DNA of 53,546 bases from Peptococcaceae bacterium (lineage in GTDB: Bacteria > Bacillota > Desulfitobacteriia > Desulfitobacteriales > Syntrophobotulaceae): assembly GCA_012517475.1 (NCBI GenBank), contig JAAYUV010000109.1:1-53546 (forward strand), read 5' to 3'. How positions within the stretch are numbered: the first letter of the stretch is position 1; every line of letters starts with the position of its first letter. The notes beneath the pieces were generated by a model that was not told the origin of the DNA, did not search any database, and was given only the letters and a program-made list of their open reading frames with translations. This document shows, piece by piece, positions 46,601 through 53,546 of the stretch. Made by a program: the position numbers and the translations under genes.

Positions 46601-47548
46601 TTGCAGCCCCTGATCATTATCATTGGACCGACCGCAGTTGGAAAAAGCGCCTTGGGAGTAGAGCTTGCGTTACAAATTCAGGGTGAAATCATTTCCGGAG
46701 ATTCCGTTCAAGTCTATCAGAAACTGAACATTGGTTCGGCCAAACCTTCTGCCGAAGAACAAAAAGGTGTGCCGCATCATCTCATTGATTTTTTAGATCC
46801 CACGGAACCGTTTACCGTTGCCCGCTTTCAAACCATGACCCGGGATCTGATCACCGAAATCAGGGCAAGAGGAAAAACCCCGATTATTGTAGGCGGGACA
46901 GGTCTGTATATCCGTTCTATCCTGGATGATTATTCTTTTCCCGAGGAAGGCTCCGATCTCATTAAAAACAAGTGGCTGGAGTACGCCCGGACCCATGGAA
47001 ACCTGCAGCTGCATGGGATATTGGCTGAATGCGATCCTGCTTCTGCGCAAAAGCTTCATCCCAATGATACATCCAGAATCATCAGGGCTTTAGAGGTATA
47101 TGAACTTACCGGGAAACCGTTATCTGCACAGCGGGACTACCTGGAAAAGGAATATTCTCATTTGGATGAGTCCATCCTGTACGTTGGACTGACCGCCCCG
47201 AGGAGTTTGCTCTATGAACGGATTAATCAGCGATGTGAGCTGATGATAGAGGCCGGTTTTATCCGGGAAGTTTCATCGTTATTGCAGGAGGGATATTCTC
47301 CCCAATTAAAAGCCTTTCAGAGCATCGGTTACCGCCATGTCGTTAATTATCTCAGGGGAATACTCACGTTTGAAGAAATGATGCGGTTGTTTAAAAGGGA
47401 TACCAGAAGGTTTGCCAAAAGGCAGCTGACATGGTTTAGAAGAGACCCCAGAGTAAAATGGTACGACATTACAAATATTGGAATTAATCGTATCGCAAAT
47501 GAGCTCAGCGATACTTGCAGAGAGATTCAATCTCGTGTACAATTATAA
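46601..47548 (+). CDS. miaA: tRNA dimethylallyltransferase MiaA
   Basis: A 315-residue enzyme with the P-loop IIGPTAVGKSALGVELA (about 7-23), ISGDSVQVYQKLNIGSAKP, HHLIDFLDP and VGGTGLYIRS, and the C-terminal RDTRRFAKRQLTWFRRD. It transfers an isopentenyl group to N6 of A37. Start TTG 46601 follows GGGGGG. It precedes hfq by 33 bases, as in Bacillus and many other bacteria. Confidence 0.96.
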   Translation: MQPLIIIIGPTAVGKSALGVELALQIQGEIISGDSVQVYQKLNIGSAKPSAEEQKGVPHHLIDFLDPTEPFTVARFQTMTRDLITEIRARGKTPIIVGGTGLYIRSILDDYSFPEEGSDLIKNKWLEYARTHGNLQLHGILAECDPASAQKLHPNDTSRIIRALEVYELTGKPLSAQRDYLEKEYSHLDESILYVGLTAPRSLLYERINQRCELMIEAGFIREVSSLLQEGYSPQLKAFQSIGYRHVVNYLRGILTFEEMMRLFKRDTRRFAKRQLTWFRRDPRVKWYDITNIGINRIANELSDTCREIQSRVQL

Positions 47549-47581: not shown

Positions 47582-47827
47582 ATGAATAAATCACCTATAA
47601 ATCTGCAGGATCTTTTTTTGAACCAAATCCGTAAAGAAAACATACCGGTGACGATCTATCTGGTCAACGGGTTTCAGCTTAAAGGTCTGGTAAAGGGTTT
47701 TGACAACTTTACAGTTATCCTTGAGTTCGAAGGCAAACAGCAAATGGTTTACAAGCATGCGATTTCGACGATTATGCCCCTCAGACAGATAAATCTGAGT
47801 GCAGGGGCTCTTGATACGGGCGAATAA
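47582..47827 (+). CDS. hfq: RNA chaperone Hfq
   Basis: An 81-residue Sm-like protein. Sm1 is [21 protein letters not shown] and Sm2 has [10 protein letters not shown] (about 56-65), the key His-Lys region for U-rich RNA. It forms hexamers and helps small RNAs meet targets. The tail after residue 70 is short, as is normal for Firmicutes. ATG 47582 follows GGAGG. A terminator lies 33 bases after the stop. Confidence 0.97.
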
Positions 47828-47898: not shown

Positions 47899-47975
47899 AC
47901 GTATATAGGGCTTGGACTGTTGGTCACCTTTTGTCGTTCCAAGCGTATATTAAAAGTAGCAGGGGGTGCATCTTC

Positions 47976-48932
47976 ATGTCTGTTAAAATAACATTCAGAA
48001 ATAATCTGCCTCCATTAATCCGAAGGTCTTTGCCAAGTACCGAAAATGAATACTTTAAAGGGATTGCCAAACCTCTTCAGAAGAAAGGGAAAAACGTACA
48101 TAACCAGGAGAATGGCAAAGAGAAGATCGAAGATATCTTAAAAGAACTGAATGATATGATAGGCCTGAATAAGGTTAAAAAGTTTGTCCATGAGCTGCAG
48201 GCCTTCGTCGAGATTCAAAAGAAACGGGAGAAGGAGAATTTGATCACTGATCCCATGGTTCTGCATATGGTATTCAGCGGAAACCCCGGTTCCGGTAAAA
48301 CTTCCGTGGCCAGACTGGTCGGCAAGCTGTTTAAAGAATTGGGAGTGCTGCAAAAAGGTCATATTATTGAATGCGAGAGGGCCGACCTGGTAGGGGAATA
48401 TATTGGACACACCGCCAATAAAACAAGGGATATGGTGAACAAAGCGCTCGGAGGAGTCCTGTTTATTGATGAAGCGTATTCACTGGCCAGGGGAGGGGAA
48501 AAGGACTTCGGCAAAGAGGCGATTGATGTCCTGGTAAAAGCCATGGAAGATCATAAATCGAACCTCATCCTGATTCTCGCCGGATACAGAATTGAAATGG
48601 ATCATTTTATCCAGGCTAACCCCGGTCTGCGCTCCCGTTTTCCCATCCATATCAATTTCCCGGATTATTCCGTCGAGGAACTCATCCAAATCGGCGAGTT
48701 AATGCTTGTTAAGAAACAATATGAATTAACACCCCAAGCTAAAGTCGCGTTTCGAAACATGCTGCAAAACATGAATCTTGTGCATCCTTATTCGGGCAAT
48801 GCCAGGATGGTAAGAAATATCGTGGAAAAAACAATCCGCAAGCAGGCGGTAAGACTGTATCAACAATCAAATCCGTCCCGTGAAGAACTTATCAGCATTA
48901 CGGAAACGGACTTGTGCAACGATGATATATAA
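47976..48932 (+). CDS. spoVK: SpoVK-type AAA ATPase
   Basis: A 318-residue CbbX-like AAA+ protein. Walker A is VFSGNPGSGKTSVARL (about 108-123), the pore-type LVGEYIGHTA follows, Walker B is VLFIDEAYSLA (about 168-178), and LRSRFPIHINFPDYS and GNARMVRN are sensor regions. In Bacillus spoVK is near miaA-hfq and is needed for late spore development. Start ATG 47976 is seven bases after AGGGGGTG; an earlier in-frame start at 47931 lacks a good site. Confidence 0.9.
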   Translation: MSVKITFRNNLPPLIRRSLPSTENEYFKGIAKPLQKKGKNVHNQENGKEKIEDILKELNDMIGLNKVKKFVHELQAFVEIQKKREKENLITDPMVLHMVFSGNPGSGKTSVARLVGKLFKELGVLQKGHIIECERADLVGEYIGHTANKTRDMVNKALGGVLFIDEAYSLARGGEKDFGKEAIDVLVKAMEDHKSNLILILAGYRIEMDHFIQANPGLRSRFPIHINFPDYSVEELIQIGELMLVKKQYELTPQAKVAFRNMLQNMNLVHPYSGNARMVRNIVEKTIRKQAVRLYQQSNPSREELISITETDLCNDDI

Positions 48933-48934
48933 AA

Positions 48935-50485
48935 TTATTCTCCTACGGCGGTACGGACAGCGTTGCGGCCGTTTTCCTTTGCTTCATATAAAGCGCTGTC
49001 TGCTTTCCGCAGAAAGTCATTGATTTGTTCATTGATCACCTTATCAACCCCGGTAACTCCAAAACTGGCGCTGACCTTAATGAAAAACCCTTCATATTCA
49101 ATTTGGGATGATTCAATAGCCGTGCGGATTCGGTTGGCAATCAATGCGGCATCTTTCCAGTTGGTTTCAGGGAGCAGGATCACAAACTCTTCACCGCCCA
49201 TCCGGGCAAGGATGTCAATGGTGCGAATATTAATCAGGCAAAGAGCGGATATCCGCTTTAAAACATAATCTCCGGCCTCATGACCAAACTTGTCATTAAT
49301 ACGCTTGAAAAAATCGATGTCGAGAATGATCAATGAGATGGGGCTTTGATTTCTTTTGGCCCGTTCCAGCTCAAAGCTGCTCTGACCGTAAAAAAATCTC
49401 CGGTTATAAACACCGGTCAGTTCATCTCTGGTTGCCAGCGTATTTAACTTTTCCATCATATCCACATATTTGCTTACATCGGAAATCGTAACAATCCTGC
49501 CTATGACCGTGTTACTTTCCGCCAGGATGTCGGAGGTAATGACGGAGTAATAATATTTTATACCTTCTCTGACTACATCGTAGTGGATATGTTTTTCTTC
49601 AAGAATGGACTGGAGCAAAATTTGATTTTCGGAGAGCACATCCTGAATTTTTTTGCCCAGGGATTTCGGGGTAAGAAAGGGCAGGACCTGAGAAGCCGCA
49701 GGATTAAATTCAATGATCTGGTAATTGGCATTTAGAATGAGAATCCCGTCCGCCGTACACTCAAAGATTTTGTCTTTGGCAAGTGGTTTTAGATTGAATA
49801 ATTCCAGTTTAAACAAACCGAATAAAAAAAGTATACAGGCAATCGTTGTTGTAAATGACCCGTAATCAATGCCAAAAGGAGAAAGGTTTAACAAATCAAG
49901 GAATAATGATGTCCAGGGCAAAATGGAAGCAATAAATAATATTATGCATTGTTTGCGGATAATCCCTGTAGATTTTTTATACTGCGAGAAAAACAAGAAA
50001 TTAGCTAAGAGGAAACAAGCGCAGGCAAAAATAAAATTGACCAGATACCAGGGTCCCTTTTCGAGGCGCATAACAGGAATGAGCGTACCGGGATCATAAA
50101 TCATAGCTGCATAAAAAAGGTGATGATAATCATTTGTATATCTTAAAATAAAAGTTAAGCAGGGAATTATAAATAAACCAATCATAAATGCCCGGGATTT
50201 TAAAATATTGTCTTTTCCGGTATATTTTAAGGCAAGAATGAACCAGGATAGGGAAAGAAACGGGAGCCCCAGATATTGTACCTTATTCCAAAAAATCATT
50301 GCGGACAGGCTCTGACTGTAAAGTTCCATGGCATAACCAAAATTATAAAAAACAATAGTGAAACAAGAAAAAGCAAAAAATTTAGAAATAGAAGTTTTCT
50401 TGTGCAATGAAAAGAAGATTATATATATCGTCATCATAGAAGAAGCAAGCAAAATTCCAGTAAATAGAACTTTAAAATTAATCAT
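48935..50485 (-). CDS. 7TM-PAS-GGDEF diguanylate cyclase
   Basis: A 516-residue membrane protein. Residues about 1-225 form seven or so membrane segments of the histidine-kinase N-terminal 7TM type. A PAS domain follows (about 240-340: IFECTADGILILNANYQIIE), then a GGDEF domain (about 350-515) with TRDELTGVYNRRFF and the active-site GGEEF. The RTID five residues ahead of it is an RxxD inhibitory site, so product control is likely. It should make cyclic di-GMP. ATG 50485 is preferred; TTG 50488 is next to it. It is convergent with spoVK (2 bases apart). Confidence 0.9.
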   Translation of the reverse strand: MINFKVLFTGILLASSMMTIYIIFFSLHKKTSISKFFAFSCFTIVFYNFGYAMELYSQSLSAMIFWNKVQYLGLPFLSLSWFILALKYTGKDNILKSRAFMIGLFIIPCLTFILRYTNDYHHLFYAAMIYDPGTLIPVMRLEKGPWYLVNFIFACACFLLANFLFFSQYKKSTGIIRKQCIILFIASILPWTSLFLDLLNLSPFGIDYGSFTTTIACILFLFGLFKLELFNLKPLAKDKIFECTADGILILNANYQIIEFNPAASQVLPFLTPKSLGKKIQDVLSENQILLQSILEEKHIHYDVVREGIKYYYSVITSDILAESNTVIGRIVTISDVSKYVDMMEKLNTLATRDELTGVYNRRFFYGQSSFELERAKRNQSPISLIILDIDFFKRINDKFGHEAGDYVLKRISALCLINIRTIDILARMGGEEFVILLPETNWKDAALIANRIRTAIESSQIEYEGFFIKVSASFGVTGVDKVINEQINDFLRKADSALYEAKENGRNAVRTAVGE

Positions 50486-50670
50486 CAAGTTTTTCTCCTG
50501 GACTTTGTTCCTATTTTAAATAATACCATATTTTTTTTATTAATATGGAAAAAATTTTTAAAAAGTCCACCAGAGGCGGATACGTAAAACGGCAAGTTGA
50601 AAAAATATCCAAGTGGTTGTAACATGGAAATGGTTCTATAAATTTTTGATGTTTATTGGAGGATTTTATT

Positions 50671-51930
50671 TTGCCATATTCCAACTTGCCGGCAAAAATT
50701 GCCGGAGCCATAGCTTATGCCGAAGAAATACTTGTGAAACAAAGCCCGTATCTAAACAGGATTGCGGAAAAAAATCATCAAAAAGTACTGAAGGCTTTTC
50801 AAAATGCTCAGGTTTCATCTTATCACCTGCACGGAACTACCGGTTATGGATTGGGTGACACGGGCAGAAACAAACTGGATGAAATCGTAGCTGCCATCAT
50901 GGGAACGGAGAAAGCGATCATTCGGCATCAATTTGTGTCGGGAACGCACGCCATCGCTTCAGCTCTTTTTGGAATATTAAGACCGGGAGATCATTTTATT
51001 TCTGTTACAGGAACACCTTATGACACCTTGCAGCAGGTGATTGGTTTAAAAAATAATATTTCCGGAAGTCTGGCCGATTTTGGGATTACCTGCGATATTC
51101 TTCCGCTGGATGAACAGAACCAAATCCAGCTTTCCCGTCTGGAACAATTGGTAAATTCCCGGACCAAATTATTTATCCTGCAGCGCTCCAAAGGGTACGA
51201 GTGGAGAAATTCCCTCACCATGTCCCAGATTGCACAATTTGCGGACTACGCGAAACAAAAATATCCCCGGATTCATATCTTTGTTGACAATTGTTACGGG
51301 GAACTGGTGGAAGAAAATGAACCCGGACAGGTTGGGGTAGATTTAATGGCCGGGTCACTGATTAAGAATCTGGGGGGAACACTTGCTCCAACCGGCGGAT
51401 ATATTGCCGGGAGAGCCGACCTTGTAGAAAAAGCGGCCACTCGCTTTACTGCTCCCGGTATTAATATGGAAGTGGGAGCCACTTTGGATCATCTCCGTTT
51501 ATTGTATCAGGGATTATTCTTTAGCCCCATGACAGTAAGCGAAGCGCTGAAAGCCGCAGTTTTCTCCTCAGCCTTTTGGCGGAACCTGGGATTTGAAGTC
51601 CACCCTGAGCCCGAGGATCATCGTACGGATATTATCCAGGCCATCAAGTTACAAACCCCGGAAAAGATGATTGCTTTTTGCCAGGGGCTGCAGAAGGGTT
51701 CTCCGATTGACTCCCATGTTTTACCGTTGCCGTCGGAAATGCCGGGTTATACGGATGAAGTGATTATGGCGGGAGGAACGTTTATTCAGGGAGCAACAAG
51801 CGAATTTTCCGCTGACGGGCCGTTAAGAGAGCCGTATGCTGTCTATATGCAGGGAGCTATTTCCCATATGTATGTAAAGAATGCCAATATTTCAGCTGCT
51901 CTGGAACTCCTGAAAAAGGAATTGCTGTAA
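50671..51930 (+). CDS. YnbB-type PLP enzyme (methionine gamma-lyase family / aluminium resistance protein)
   Basis: A 419-residue fold type I PLP enzyme. Recognisable are GYGLGDTGRNKLDEI (about 62-76), IVRHQFVSGTHAI-like SGTHAIASALFG, DNCYGELVEENEP (about 207-219) and the PLP lysine in AGSLIKNLGGTLAPTGGYI (about 227-245). The family is close to cystathionine gamma-lyase/methionine gamma-lyase and was named for aluminium resistance; the true substrate is unsettled. Start TTG 50671 is eight bases after GGAGG. In Bacillus ynbB lies near miaA-hfq, so the neighbourhood is conserved. Confidence 0.9.
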   Translation: MPYSNLPAKIAGAIAYAEEILVKQSPYLNRIAEKNHQKVLKAFQNAQVSSYHLHGTTGYGLGDTGRNKLDEIVAAIMGTEKAIIRHQFVSGTHAIASALFGILRPGDHFISVTGTPYDTLQQVIGLKNNISGSLADFGITCDILPLDEQNQIQLSRLEQLVNSRTKLFILQRSKGYEWRNSLTMSQIAQFADYAKQKYPRIHIFVDNCYGELVEENEPGQVGVDLMAGSLIKNLGGTLAPTGGYIAGRADLVEKAATRFTAPGINMEVGATLDHLRLLYQGLFFSPMTVSEALKAAVFSSAFWRNLGFEVHPEPEDHRTDIIQAIKLQTPEKMIAFCQGLQKGSPIDSHVLPLPSEMPGYTDEVIMAGGTFIQGATSEFSADGPLREPYAVYMQGAISHMYVKNANISAALELLKKELL

Positions 51931-51945
51931 AATGAGGATAGTTAG

Positions 51946-52470
51946 GTGTGGTATGTGAAACCATTGAAGGACAAAGCTAAATTTATTGCGGAATTACTGG
52001 AAATCATGTTATTCGTCTTTGCATTTTCATGGTTTGCCCAACACTATGTGCTTGGTTTTGCCGCTGTAAAAGGGGATGGGATGTTACCTTTACTCGGTAA
52101 GAACAACCAGGTGTTTGTAATGAAACTTTTCAAAAATGCTTCCGCCTTAAGCAGGGGAGATATTGTTATCTTCACGGACAAAAATAACAATGACAACACC
52201 GTAAGGCTGATTGGGCTGCCCGGAGAGAAAGTAGAGATCAAAAACGGCTTAACATTTATTAACGGGAAACCAATCTATGAACCCTATGCCCATACCCCTT
52301 TGACCTATGAGATGGCACCGGTCATTGTTCCCAAAAATAATATTTTTGTTCTGAATGACAACCGTTCGGATCAAAAGGATTCAAGGGAATATGGAAGTGT
52401 TCCTTTTGAATGGCTAAAGGGAAGAGCCGTCTTTTGTTATTGGCCCTGGACAAAAATTCAGGTCCTATAA
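51946..52470 (+). CDS. Signal peptidase I homologue lacking the catalytic Ser and Lys
   Basis: A 174-residue S26-family protein. One membrane segment is at about 15-36. The usual catalytic motif G-E-S-M-x-P-T-L reads GDGMLPLL (43-50), with Gly45 in place of Ser. The usual K-R-V-I-G-L-P-G reads VRLIGLPG (86-93), with Val86 in place of Lys. The structural motifs are intact: RGDIVIF (70-76) and LNDNRSDQKDSREYGSVP (136-153). So the fold is kept but the Ser-Lys dyad is gone. Start GTG 51946 follows GAGGA at 51934-51938. It lies 15 bases after the PLP-enzyme gene, probably in the same operon. Role is unknown. Confidence 0.85.
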   Translation: MWYVKPLKDKAKFIAELLEIMLFVFAFSWFAQHYVLGFAAVKGDGMLPLLGKNNQVFVMKLFKNASALSRGDIVIFTDKNNNDNTVRLIGLPGEKVEIKNGLTFINGKPIYEPYAHTPLTYEMAPVIVPKNNIFVLNDNRSDQKDSREYGSVPFEWLKGRAVFCYWPWTKIQVL

Positions 52471-52561
52471 TGATTGATGAATGACTTCATTTCAAGCGAA
52501 TATATTTAAACTAAACTCAGGAATGAAATAGGCGGATTAGCAAAGTAACCCGCCCCTTCCC

Positions 52562-52595
52562 GAACCGTACAAGCGACTTTCACCGCATACGGCTC
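52562..52595 (-). ncRNA. Group II intron domain V
   Basis: On the minus strand the 34 bases read GAGCCGTATGCGG, then TGAAAGTCGC, then TTGTACGGTTC: two pairing arms, a GAAA tetraloop and a dinucleotide bulge. This is the conserved catalytic hairpin of bacterial group II introns. Confidence 0.88.
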
Positions 52596-52612
52596 TCCAT
52601 ATTCCAAATGAG

Positions 52613-53546
52613 TTATCGTCGTTTTAACTGATTTAGCTGAAACCTGTCGGCTTCGACATTGGCAAAGCAGTGTTCGCATAAGGGTATCTGACGCCGGTTG
52701 ATGGCCAGCATGACAGTGACAATCGGTGAATAGGGCTTGTCGAGCTTCTTCTTCGTTTTCCTGTGATACATGCTGACATGAAAATGCGGATTGCCGCAAA
52801 TGTAGCAGACACGGGAAAGAGGGTCCATCAAGTTGTACTCAGGCAGGCAAAATGATTGAACTGCCGACTTGATTTTAGCGAAGAAGTCCTTGTGTCTCGA
52901 AAAAGATTTGTACAGTGCCAGACTGACTGAGCAGGCTTTGCCCTTGGCGTTCTTGTAATTGACCAAGAGAGATCTGCCGTAACGTGCGAACACTTTCTTC
53001 ATGCTGATGTCGAATTTTCGCGCCAGGGTTTTAGCTATGGAAAACTGCACAATGTATTGGATGCGCGAACCCTTGTAGAAGTTGACGCAACCACGTTGCT
53101 GAGTCAGGAGTCCACGGAGTACCTGGTTGCCGTACTTGATGATTTCTTCCGGAGATTCTCTAAGGAGACGAGTGATACCGACGGGATAACCGTTACCTTT
53201 ACACAAACCGTTTTCACGTAGCTTTTTCAGAATACCATCCGTATTCATGTAGATACGGATGGTTGGGTCAAAAGGGTGGCTTTGAAATTTGCTGTGTTTG
53301 CCGGTGCCCTTGCGGATGATATATCCGAGAAAGGCCACTTCATTCTCTGGGGCATGTGTGATTTTGGTTTTCTCGTCGCTTAATCTCAGGCAGAGCTCGT
53401 TTTTTAGGAACTCCTTGATTTTCTGTTTCAAGTCGATTGCATAGGCCTTGGGAGCAATCACACCAATCAGAAAATCGTCGGCGTAGCGCACATACTTCAC
53501 TCTGCGGAAATTGGGGTCGTATCTGTCTGAAGTCGGGAGGTTTTCC
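52613..53546 (-). CDS. Group II intron reverse transcriptase/maturase, partial
   Basis: The frame is open from the right edge, about 311 residues, so the start is missing. The RT catalytic box is RYADDFLIGV, preceded by YDPNFRRVKYV. The thumb follows, then an X domain (LRGLLTQQRGCVNFYKG, then RKFDISMKKVFARYG). A C-terminal zinc/HNH-like segment has CYICGNPHFHVSMYHRK and INRRQIPLCEHCFANVEA; the usual His-His of the HNH endonuclease is Tyr-His, so cleavage may be lost. It helps the intron splice and insert. It reads toward the signal peptidase homologue. Confidence 0.88.
   Translation of the reverse strand, partial: ENLPTSDRYDPNFRRVKYVRYADDFLIGVIAPKAYAIDLKQKIKEFLKNELCLRLSDEKTKITHAPENEVAFLGYIIRKGTGKHSKFQSHPFDPTIRIYMNTDGILKKLRENGLCKGNGYPVGITRLLRESPEEIIKYGNQVLRGLLTQQRGCVNFYKGSRIQYIVQFSIAKTLARKFDISMKKVFARYGRSLLVNYKNAKGKACSVSLALYKSFSRHKDFFAKIKSAVQSFCLPEYNLMDPLSRVCYICGNPHFHVSMYHRKTKKKLDKPYSPIVTVMLAINRRQIPLCEHCFANVEADRFQLNQLKRR

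What the first reader, a model, noticed from the sequence alone, without database searches (positions are those of the whole stretch)
51946..52470. Signal peptidase I homologue without catalytic Ser-Lys
GDGMLPLL has Gly instead of Ser, and TVRLIGLPG has Val instead of Lys, while structural boxes are conserved and the frame is intact. A kept but non-catalytic signal peptidase could act as a chaperone, inhibitor or regulator of the true enzyme. It is placed after a PLP enzyme gene, possibly in one operon.
Basis: seen in the sequence. Interest (0 to 1): 0.65.

Follow-up and report, generated by a model that had tools for sequence, protein, structure and literature searches.

The report
Signal peptidase relative without catalytic residues
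A gene that once made a protein-cutting enzyme of the secretion pathway has lost its cutting residues, yet it has been kept under selection across a bacterial family that includes Dehalobacter and Syntrophobotulus, so it probably now binds exported proteins instead of cutting them.

Summary
The 174-codon frame at 51946-52470 is a full type I signal peptidase (S26) with Gly45 (GGG) at the Ser site and Val86 (GTA) at the Lys site. The genome has two other S26 genes with intact dyads, one a standard lepB. The gene sits in a conserved row, miaA-hfq-spoVK-Met_gamma_lyase-SIP-ddl-lexA. In sister families all 24 syntenic orthologues keep Ser, Lys and the box E motif GDNR..S. In the window's own family, 17 syntenic orthologues form one fast-evolving clade: Ser is gone in 12 (G, E, A, T or D) and Lys in 3. 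All 16 readable box E motifs have Gly->Asn and have lost the serine that supports the Lys. [quoted passage not shown] The clade is under purifying selection (omega 0.124 without Ser, 0.130 with Ser), so selection does not depend on the nucleophile. Most likely this is a membrane-anchored pseudo-peptidase that binds signal or exported peptides without cutting (SipA/SpsA-like, probably of separate origin). No partner is known. The gene is absent in two sister genera. New variant of a known kind; moderate interest.

The parts
51946..52470 (+). Non-catalytic type I signal peptidase homologue (S26), likely start GTG 51955; one N-terminal helix (model residues 8-35, membrane anchor) then the S26 beta domain
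52078..52080 (+). Gly45 codon GGG at the position of the Ser nucleophile (box B)
52201..52203 (+). Val86 codon GTA at the position of the general-base Lys (box D)
52354..52356 (+). Asn137 codon AAT at the position of the box E Gly (E. coli Gly272); Asn in 16/16 of the clade, Gly in 24/24 sister orthologues
   Evidence: PMC4049620
52372..52374 (+). Gln143 at the position of the Lys-supporting Ser (E. coli Ser278); Ser lost in 16/16 of the clade
52435..52437 (+). Cys164, a clade-specific conserved residue (15/16; Arg in 23/24 sister orthologues)
50671..51930 (+). PLP enzyme, Met_gamma_lyase family, directly upstream; likely same transcript
47931..48932 (+). SpoVK-like AAA protein of the conserved gene row (named from its sequence, not scanned against a library)
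47582..47827 (+). Hfq of the conserved gene row (named from its sequence)
46601..47548 (+). MiaA of the conserved gene row (named from its sequence)
52523..53546 (-). 3' part of an antisense group II intron (RF00029 at 52523-52597, maturase fragment 52613-53500) lying between this gene and ddl, which is on contig C19

Best explanation
The gene encodes a membrane-anchored pseudo-signal-peptidase: an S26 protein that keeps the fold and probably the peptide groove outside the membrane but cannot cut. Shown: Ser and Lys are replaced; the box E Gly and the Lys-supporting Ser are replaced across the whole family-level clade; the gene descends vertically at a fixed locus; it is under purifying selection of equal strength with or without Ser; an intact lepB is present. 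Inferred: the ancestor became redundant beside lepB, lost catalysis on the stem branch, and was retained because it binds signal peptides or exported segments of some client without cutting them, holding or positioning them at the membrane as SipA is proposed to do. Ser, then Lys, were lost afterwards in separate genera. I put about 0.85 on 'selected and non-catalytic' and about 0.5 on 'peptide-binding chaperone or adaptor' as its specific role.
For: Ser/Lys replaced. Syntenic orthologues in sister families intact, 24/24. The family clade is monophyletic (100/99) with a stem of 0.78, nested in the syntenic orthologues. Gly272-equivalent -> Asn in 16/16 and Ser278-equivalent lost in 16/16, against 0/24 in sisters (Fisher 1.6e-11, which ignores relatedness). 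SipA has Gly272->Asn140, said to be incompatible with the Lys, and Ser278->Arg145 (PMC4049620). Omega: clade 0.138, sister orthologues 0.064, the family's lepB 0.069; without Ser 0.124, with Ser 0.130; omega=1 is rejected (lnL -4277.5 vs -4078.7). Close pairs with dS under 0.4 give dN/dS 0.13-0.19. A neutral simulation gives an internal stop in 84% of runs at 0.077 substitutions per site, and no stop is seen in 17 genes. Model pLDDT 85.5; best structural match SipA 4n31, Z 16.6, E. coli SPase Z 15.3. Intact lepB in the own genome.
Against: No partner, expression or binding data. Selection is about twofold weaker than on lepB, and the gene is absent from genera g4 and g11, so its function is dispensable in some lineages. 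Five members keep Ser and Lys, so activity in those is not excluded. Binding of peptides by SipA itself could not be shown in pull-downs (PMC4049620). Conservation of individual groove residues was not mapped.
Confidence: 0.72

Rival explanations
1. It regulates or competes with LepB: by occupying preproteins or pairing with LepB in the membrane it slows or tunes signal-peptide cleavage.
For: An intact paralogue is present in the own genome and in most relatives; the fold is kept.
Against: Two draft relatives (G003, G023) show no lepB beside it, though a gap is likely. No evidence of interaction could be sought here.
Confidence: 0.2
2. It is a decaying redundant copy on its way to loss, with no function of its own.
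For: Fast stem, relaxed omega, several separate Ser losses, gene absent in g4 and g11.
Against: omega=1 rejected by about 199 log units; no stop codon in 17 genes across a family; new residues became fixed (Asn137 16/16, Cys164 15/16, Pro109 and Tyr111 17/17).
Confidence: 0.1
3. It is still a peptidase using another nucleophile or a rearranged site.
For: Thr at the Ser site in g10; Lys kept in 14/17; Ser kept in 5/17.
Against: The replacements are chemically unrelated (G, E, A, T, D). In the window protein both sites are non-reactive (Gly, Val). The support residues of the Lys are lost in all.
Confidence: 0.06
4. The changes are sequencing or assembly errors.
For: The assembly is a draft of 115 contigs.
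Against: The congener shares GGG at the Ser site, and complete genomes (D. restrictus, S. glycolicus) have their own replacements.
Confidence: 0.01

Closest known systems
SipA of Streptococcus pyogenes (pilus assembly, PDB 4n31)
   Same: S26 fold without Ser/Lys; same box E Gly->Asn and loss of the Ser278 equivalent; best structural match of the model (Z 16.6, close to the SPases at 15).
   Different: SipA lies in pilus operons with a class B sortase; this gene lies in a housekeeping row between Met_gamma_lyase and ddl. Dyad replacement is Asp/Gly in SipA, Gly/Val here. Descent from an intact syntenic orthologue points to a separate origin (SipA was not put in the tree).
SpsA of Staphylococcus aureus
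   Same: Inactive paralogue lacking both catalytic residues beside an essential active SpsB (PMC12445088).
   Different: Its sequence was not compared here; it lies at a different locus (next to spsB, from general knowledge).
SipS/LepB type I signal peptidases, including the syntenic orthologues of sister families
   Same: Fold, membrane anchor, locus, boxes B, D and E in outline.
   Different: Those keep Ser, Lys, box E Gly and Ser; this clade has lost them wholly or partly.

Membership tests
Type I signal peptidase (S26A), as an enzyme | S26 domain over curated cut-offs | tested here: met
   PF10502 102 bits, TIGR02227 124 bits
Type I signal peptidase (S26A), as an enzyme | Ser nucleophile in box B | tested here: not met
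   Gly45
Type I signal peptidase (S26A), as an enzyme | Lys general base in box D | tested here: not met
   Val86
Type I signal peptidase (S26A), as an enzyme | Box E Gly and Ser that support the Lys | tested here: not met
   Asn137, Gln143
Type I signal peptidase (S26A), as an enzyme | Cleaves signal peptides | not testable with these tools
   needs an assay
SipA-like non-enzymatic SPase homologues | SPase fold with dyad missing | tested here: met
SipA-like non-enzymatic SPase homologues | Location in a sortase/pilus operon | tested here: not met
   Neighbours are Met_gamma_lyase, and ddl and lexA in relatives
SipA-like non-enzymatic SPase homologues | Common descent with SipA | tested here: inconclusive
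   Clade is nested in syntenic intact orthologues, but SipA was not in that tree; profile score 56 bits to SipA against 106 to a true SPase
SipA-like non-enzymatic SPase homologues | Retained peptide-binding cleft | not tested
   Fold match only; cleft residues not mapped on the model

The most novel reading that the evidence does not exclude
A family-wide switch of a housekeeping-locus signal peptidase to a non-cutting binding protein occurred on one stem branch, marked by box E Gly->Asn as in SipA. Even members that still carry Ser and Lys are then already non-enzymatic, giving a natural series of stages in pseudo-enzyme evolution with a new cellular role.
Probability: 0.5. Interest if true: 0.65.

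Novelty: new variant of a known kind. Interest (0 to 1): 0.5.

Why it matters
Non-catalytic signal peptidases are known from a few Gram-positive pathogens and are poorly understood; how SipA works is still open. Here the loss is seen in environmental anaerobes, including Dehalobacter restrictus and Syntrophobotulus glycolicus, with a fixed locus, intact orthologues in sister families, and members at several stages of active-site loss. That makes the question of what a dead signal peptidase is for testable by comparison. It also warns that automatic annotation as 'signal peptidase I' (the TIGR02227 equivalog cut-off is passed) is misleading for these genes.

Tried and rejected
One search suggested Lys was lost in many relatives; a proper alignment shows that was a gap artefact, and Lys is lost in only 3 of 17. 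The parsimony count of Ser changes is 4 on both trees but allows Ser to be regained. If regain is barred, I count 7 losses by hand on the MGL tree; Gly GGC to Ser AGC is a single-base change, so regain between G003 and g6 is possible. A class-wide profile search ranked the family's genes first and then sister-family and other S26 genes; those beyond the 24 syntenic ones were not all read. No paper on signal peptidases of Dehalobacter was found. Promoter scan: no site between MGL and this gene, and counts near chance.

Full report
OBSERVATION. The open frame 51946-52470 (+) is complete and scores above curated cut-offs for Peptidase_S26 (PF10502, 102 bits) and signal peptidase I (TIGR02227, 124 bits). 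In an alignment of 82 S26 proteins, the Ser column holds Gly45 (GGG) and the Lys column Val86 (GTA). The start is more likely GTG 51955, as in the congener's 171-aa protein (inference).

THE INTACT PARALOGUES. The same genome holds two other S26 genes with intact Ser and Lys: a standard lepB on contig C51 and a more distant type on C112. In most relatives a standard lepB is likewise present. Two drafts (G003, 77% complete; G023, 210 contigs) show none. I take these as gaps, but this is not proven.

LOCUS. Gene order SAM-methyltransferase-like, miaA, hfq, spoVK-like, Met_gamma_lyase, S26, ddl, lexA is kept across the order, with small interruptions in some genomes. In the window the S26 gene begins 15-24 bases after the PLP gene's stop, so one transcript is likely. 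Downstream in the window lies an antisense group II intron (RF00029 at 52523-52597). ddl and lexA are on the 3.6-kb contig C19, whose end upstream of ddl carries sequence that looks like the intron's 5' end (the join is inferred).

RELATIVES. In other families of the order, all 24 syntenic orthologues examined keep Ser, Lys, box E Gly and box E Ser. In the window's family, 17 genomes have the syntenic gene. Ser is kept in 5 and replaced in 12: Gly in 3, Glu in 4, Ala in 2, Thr in 2, Asp in 1. Lys is replaced in 3 (Val, Glu, Arg), all of which also lack Ser. Box E could be read in 16: Gly->Asn in all 16, and the Ser is lost in all 16, including the five with Ser and Lys. New residues have become fixed: Cys164 in 15/16, Pro109 and Tyr111 in 17/17. 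By exact genome length, G002 is Dehalobacter restrictus PER-K23 (2,943,336 bp, PMC3910700; Glu at the Ser site) and G007 is Syntrophobotulus glycolicus (3,406,739 bp, PMC3156405; Ala).

TREE. With the trait columns left out, the 17 form one clade (100/99) on a long stem (0.78), nested among the syntenic intact orthologues. So the gene descends from an intact signal peptidase at the same locus. On an independent tree of the neighbouring PLP gene, Ser-keeping and Ser-lacking genera are interleaved. The fewest changes are 4 if Ser may be regained; by hand I count 7 losses if it may not. In g11 genomes G011 and G016 the PLP gene is followed directly by ddl, so the S26 gene is gone; it is also not found in g4.

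SELECTION. Omega by a codon model is 0.138 for the clade, 0.064 for the sister orthologues and 0.069 for the family's own lepB. Splitting the clade gives 0.124 without Ser and 0.130 with Ser, so constraint is unrelated to the nucleophile. Omega of 1 is rejected for the Ser-lacking set (lnL -4277.5 against -4078.7). Close pairs with dS under 0.4 give 0.13-0.19. These say the protein is kept for something, under looser constraint than lepB. The Fisher values ignore relatedness and are only descriptive.

STRUCTURE. The AlphaFold2 model (36-sequence alignment) has pLDDT 85.5 and one N-terminal helix followed by the SPase beta domain. The best structural match is SipA of S. pyogenes (4n31_B, Z 16.6, rmsd 2.1 over 129), with E. 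coli signal peptidase at Z 15.3; these are close. Sequence profiles match true SPases better (106 bits) than SipA (56 bits).

WHAT IT WORKS LIKE. SipA lacks the dyad, has no detectable peptidase activity and is essential for pilus polymerisation. [quoted passage not shown] The clade here shares exactly the Gly->Asn change and the loss of that Ser. I therefore infer that catalysis was lost or strongly altered on the stem, before Ser and Lys themselves were lost. The likeliest function is non-cutting binding of signal or exported peptides at the membrane. Client and purpose are unknown. The SipA authors could not show peptide binding either.

NOVELTY. Inactive SPase homologues are known (SipA; SpsA, PMC12445088). 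What is new here is a family-wide case in environmental anaerobes at a housekeeping locus, with intact syntenic orthologues in sister families and graded loss, and with the same box E mark as SipA. SipA was not put in the tree, so independent origin is inferred from synteny and nesting. Verdict: observation confirmed, interpretation supported in outline, new variant of a known kind.

Noticed in passing
window 52490-53546 and L195 (contig C19, 3645 bases): An antisense group II intron appears to sit between this gene and ddl, close to the ddl ribosome-binding site, so ddl may be cut off from the upstream transcript.
   Followed up: partly
L104 (G010, contig C2): G010 carries an extra intact S26 gene that groups with the sister-family syntenic orthologues but has no PLP gene found beside it: horizontal gain or contamination.
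   Followed up: no
G023 and G003: No standard lepB found beside the pseudo-peptidase in these drafts; probably assembly gaps, but G023 is rated 99% complete.
   Followed up: partly
window 48935-50488 (-): A GGDEF protein gene on the opposite strand interrupts the gene row between spoVK-like and the PLP gene; among the loci checked it was seen also in G001 and G014 only.
   Followed up: no
window 52435-52437: Cys164 replaces an otherwise conserved Arg in 15 of 16 clade members; a lone extracytoplasmic cysteine of unknown role.
   Followed up: no
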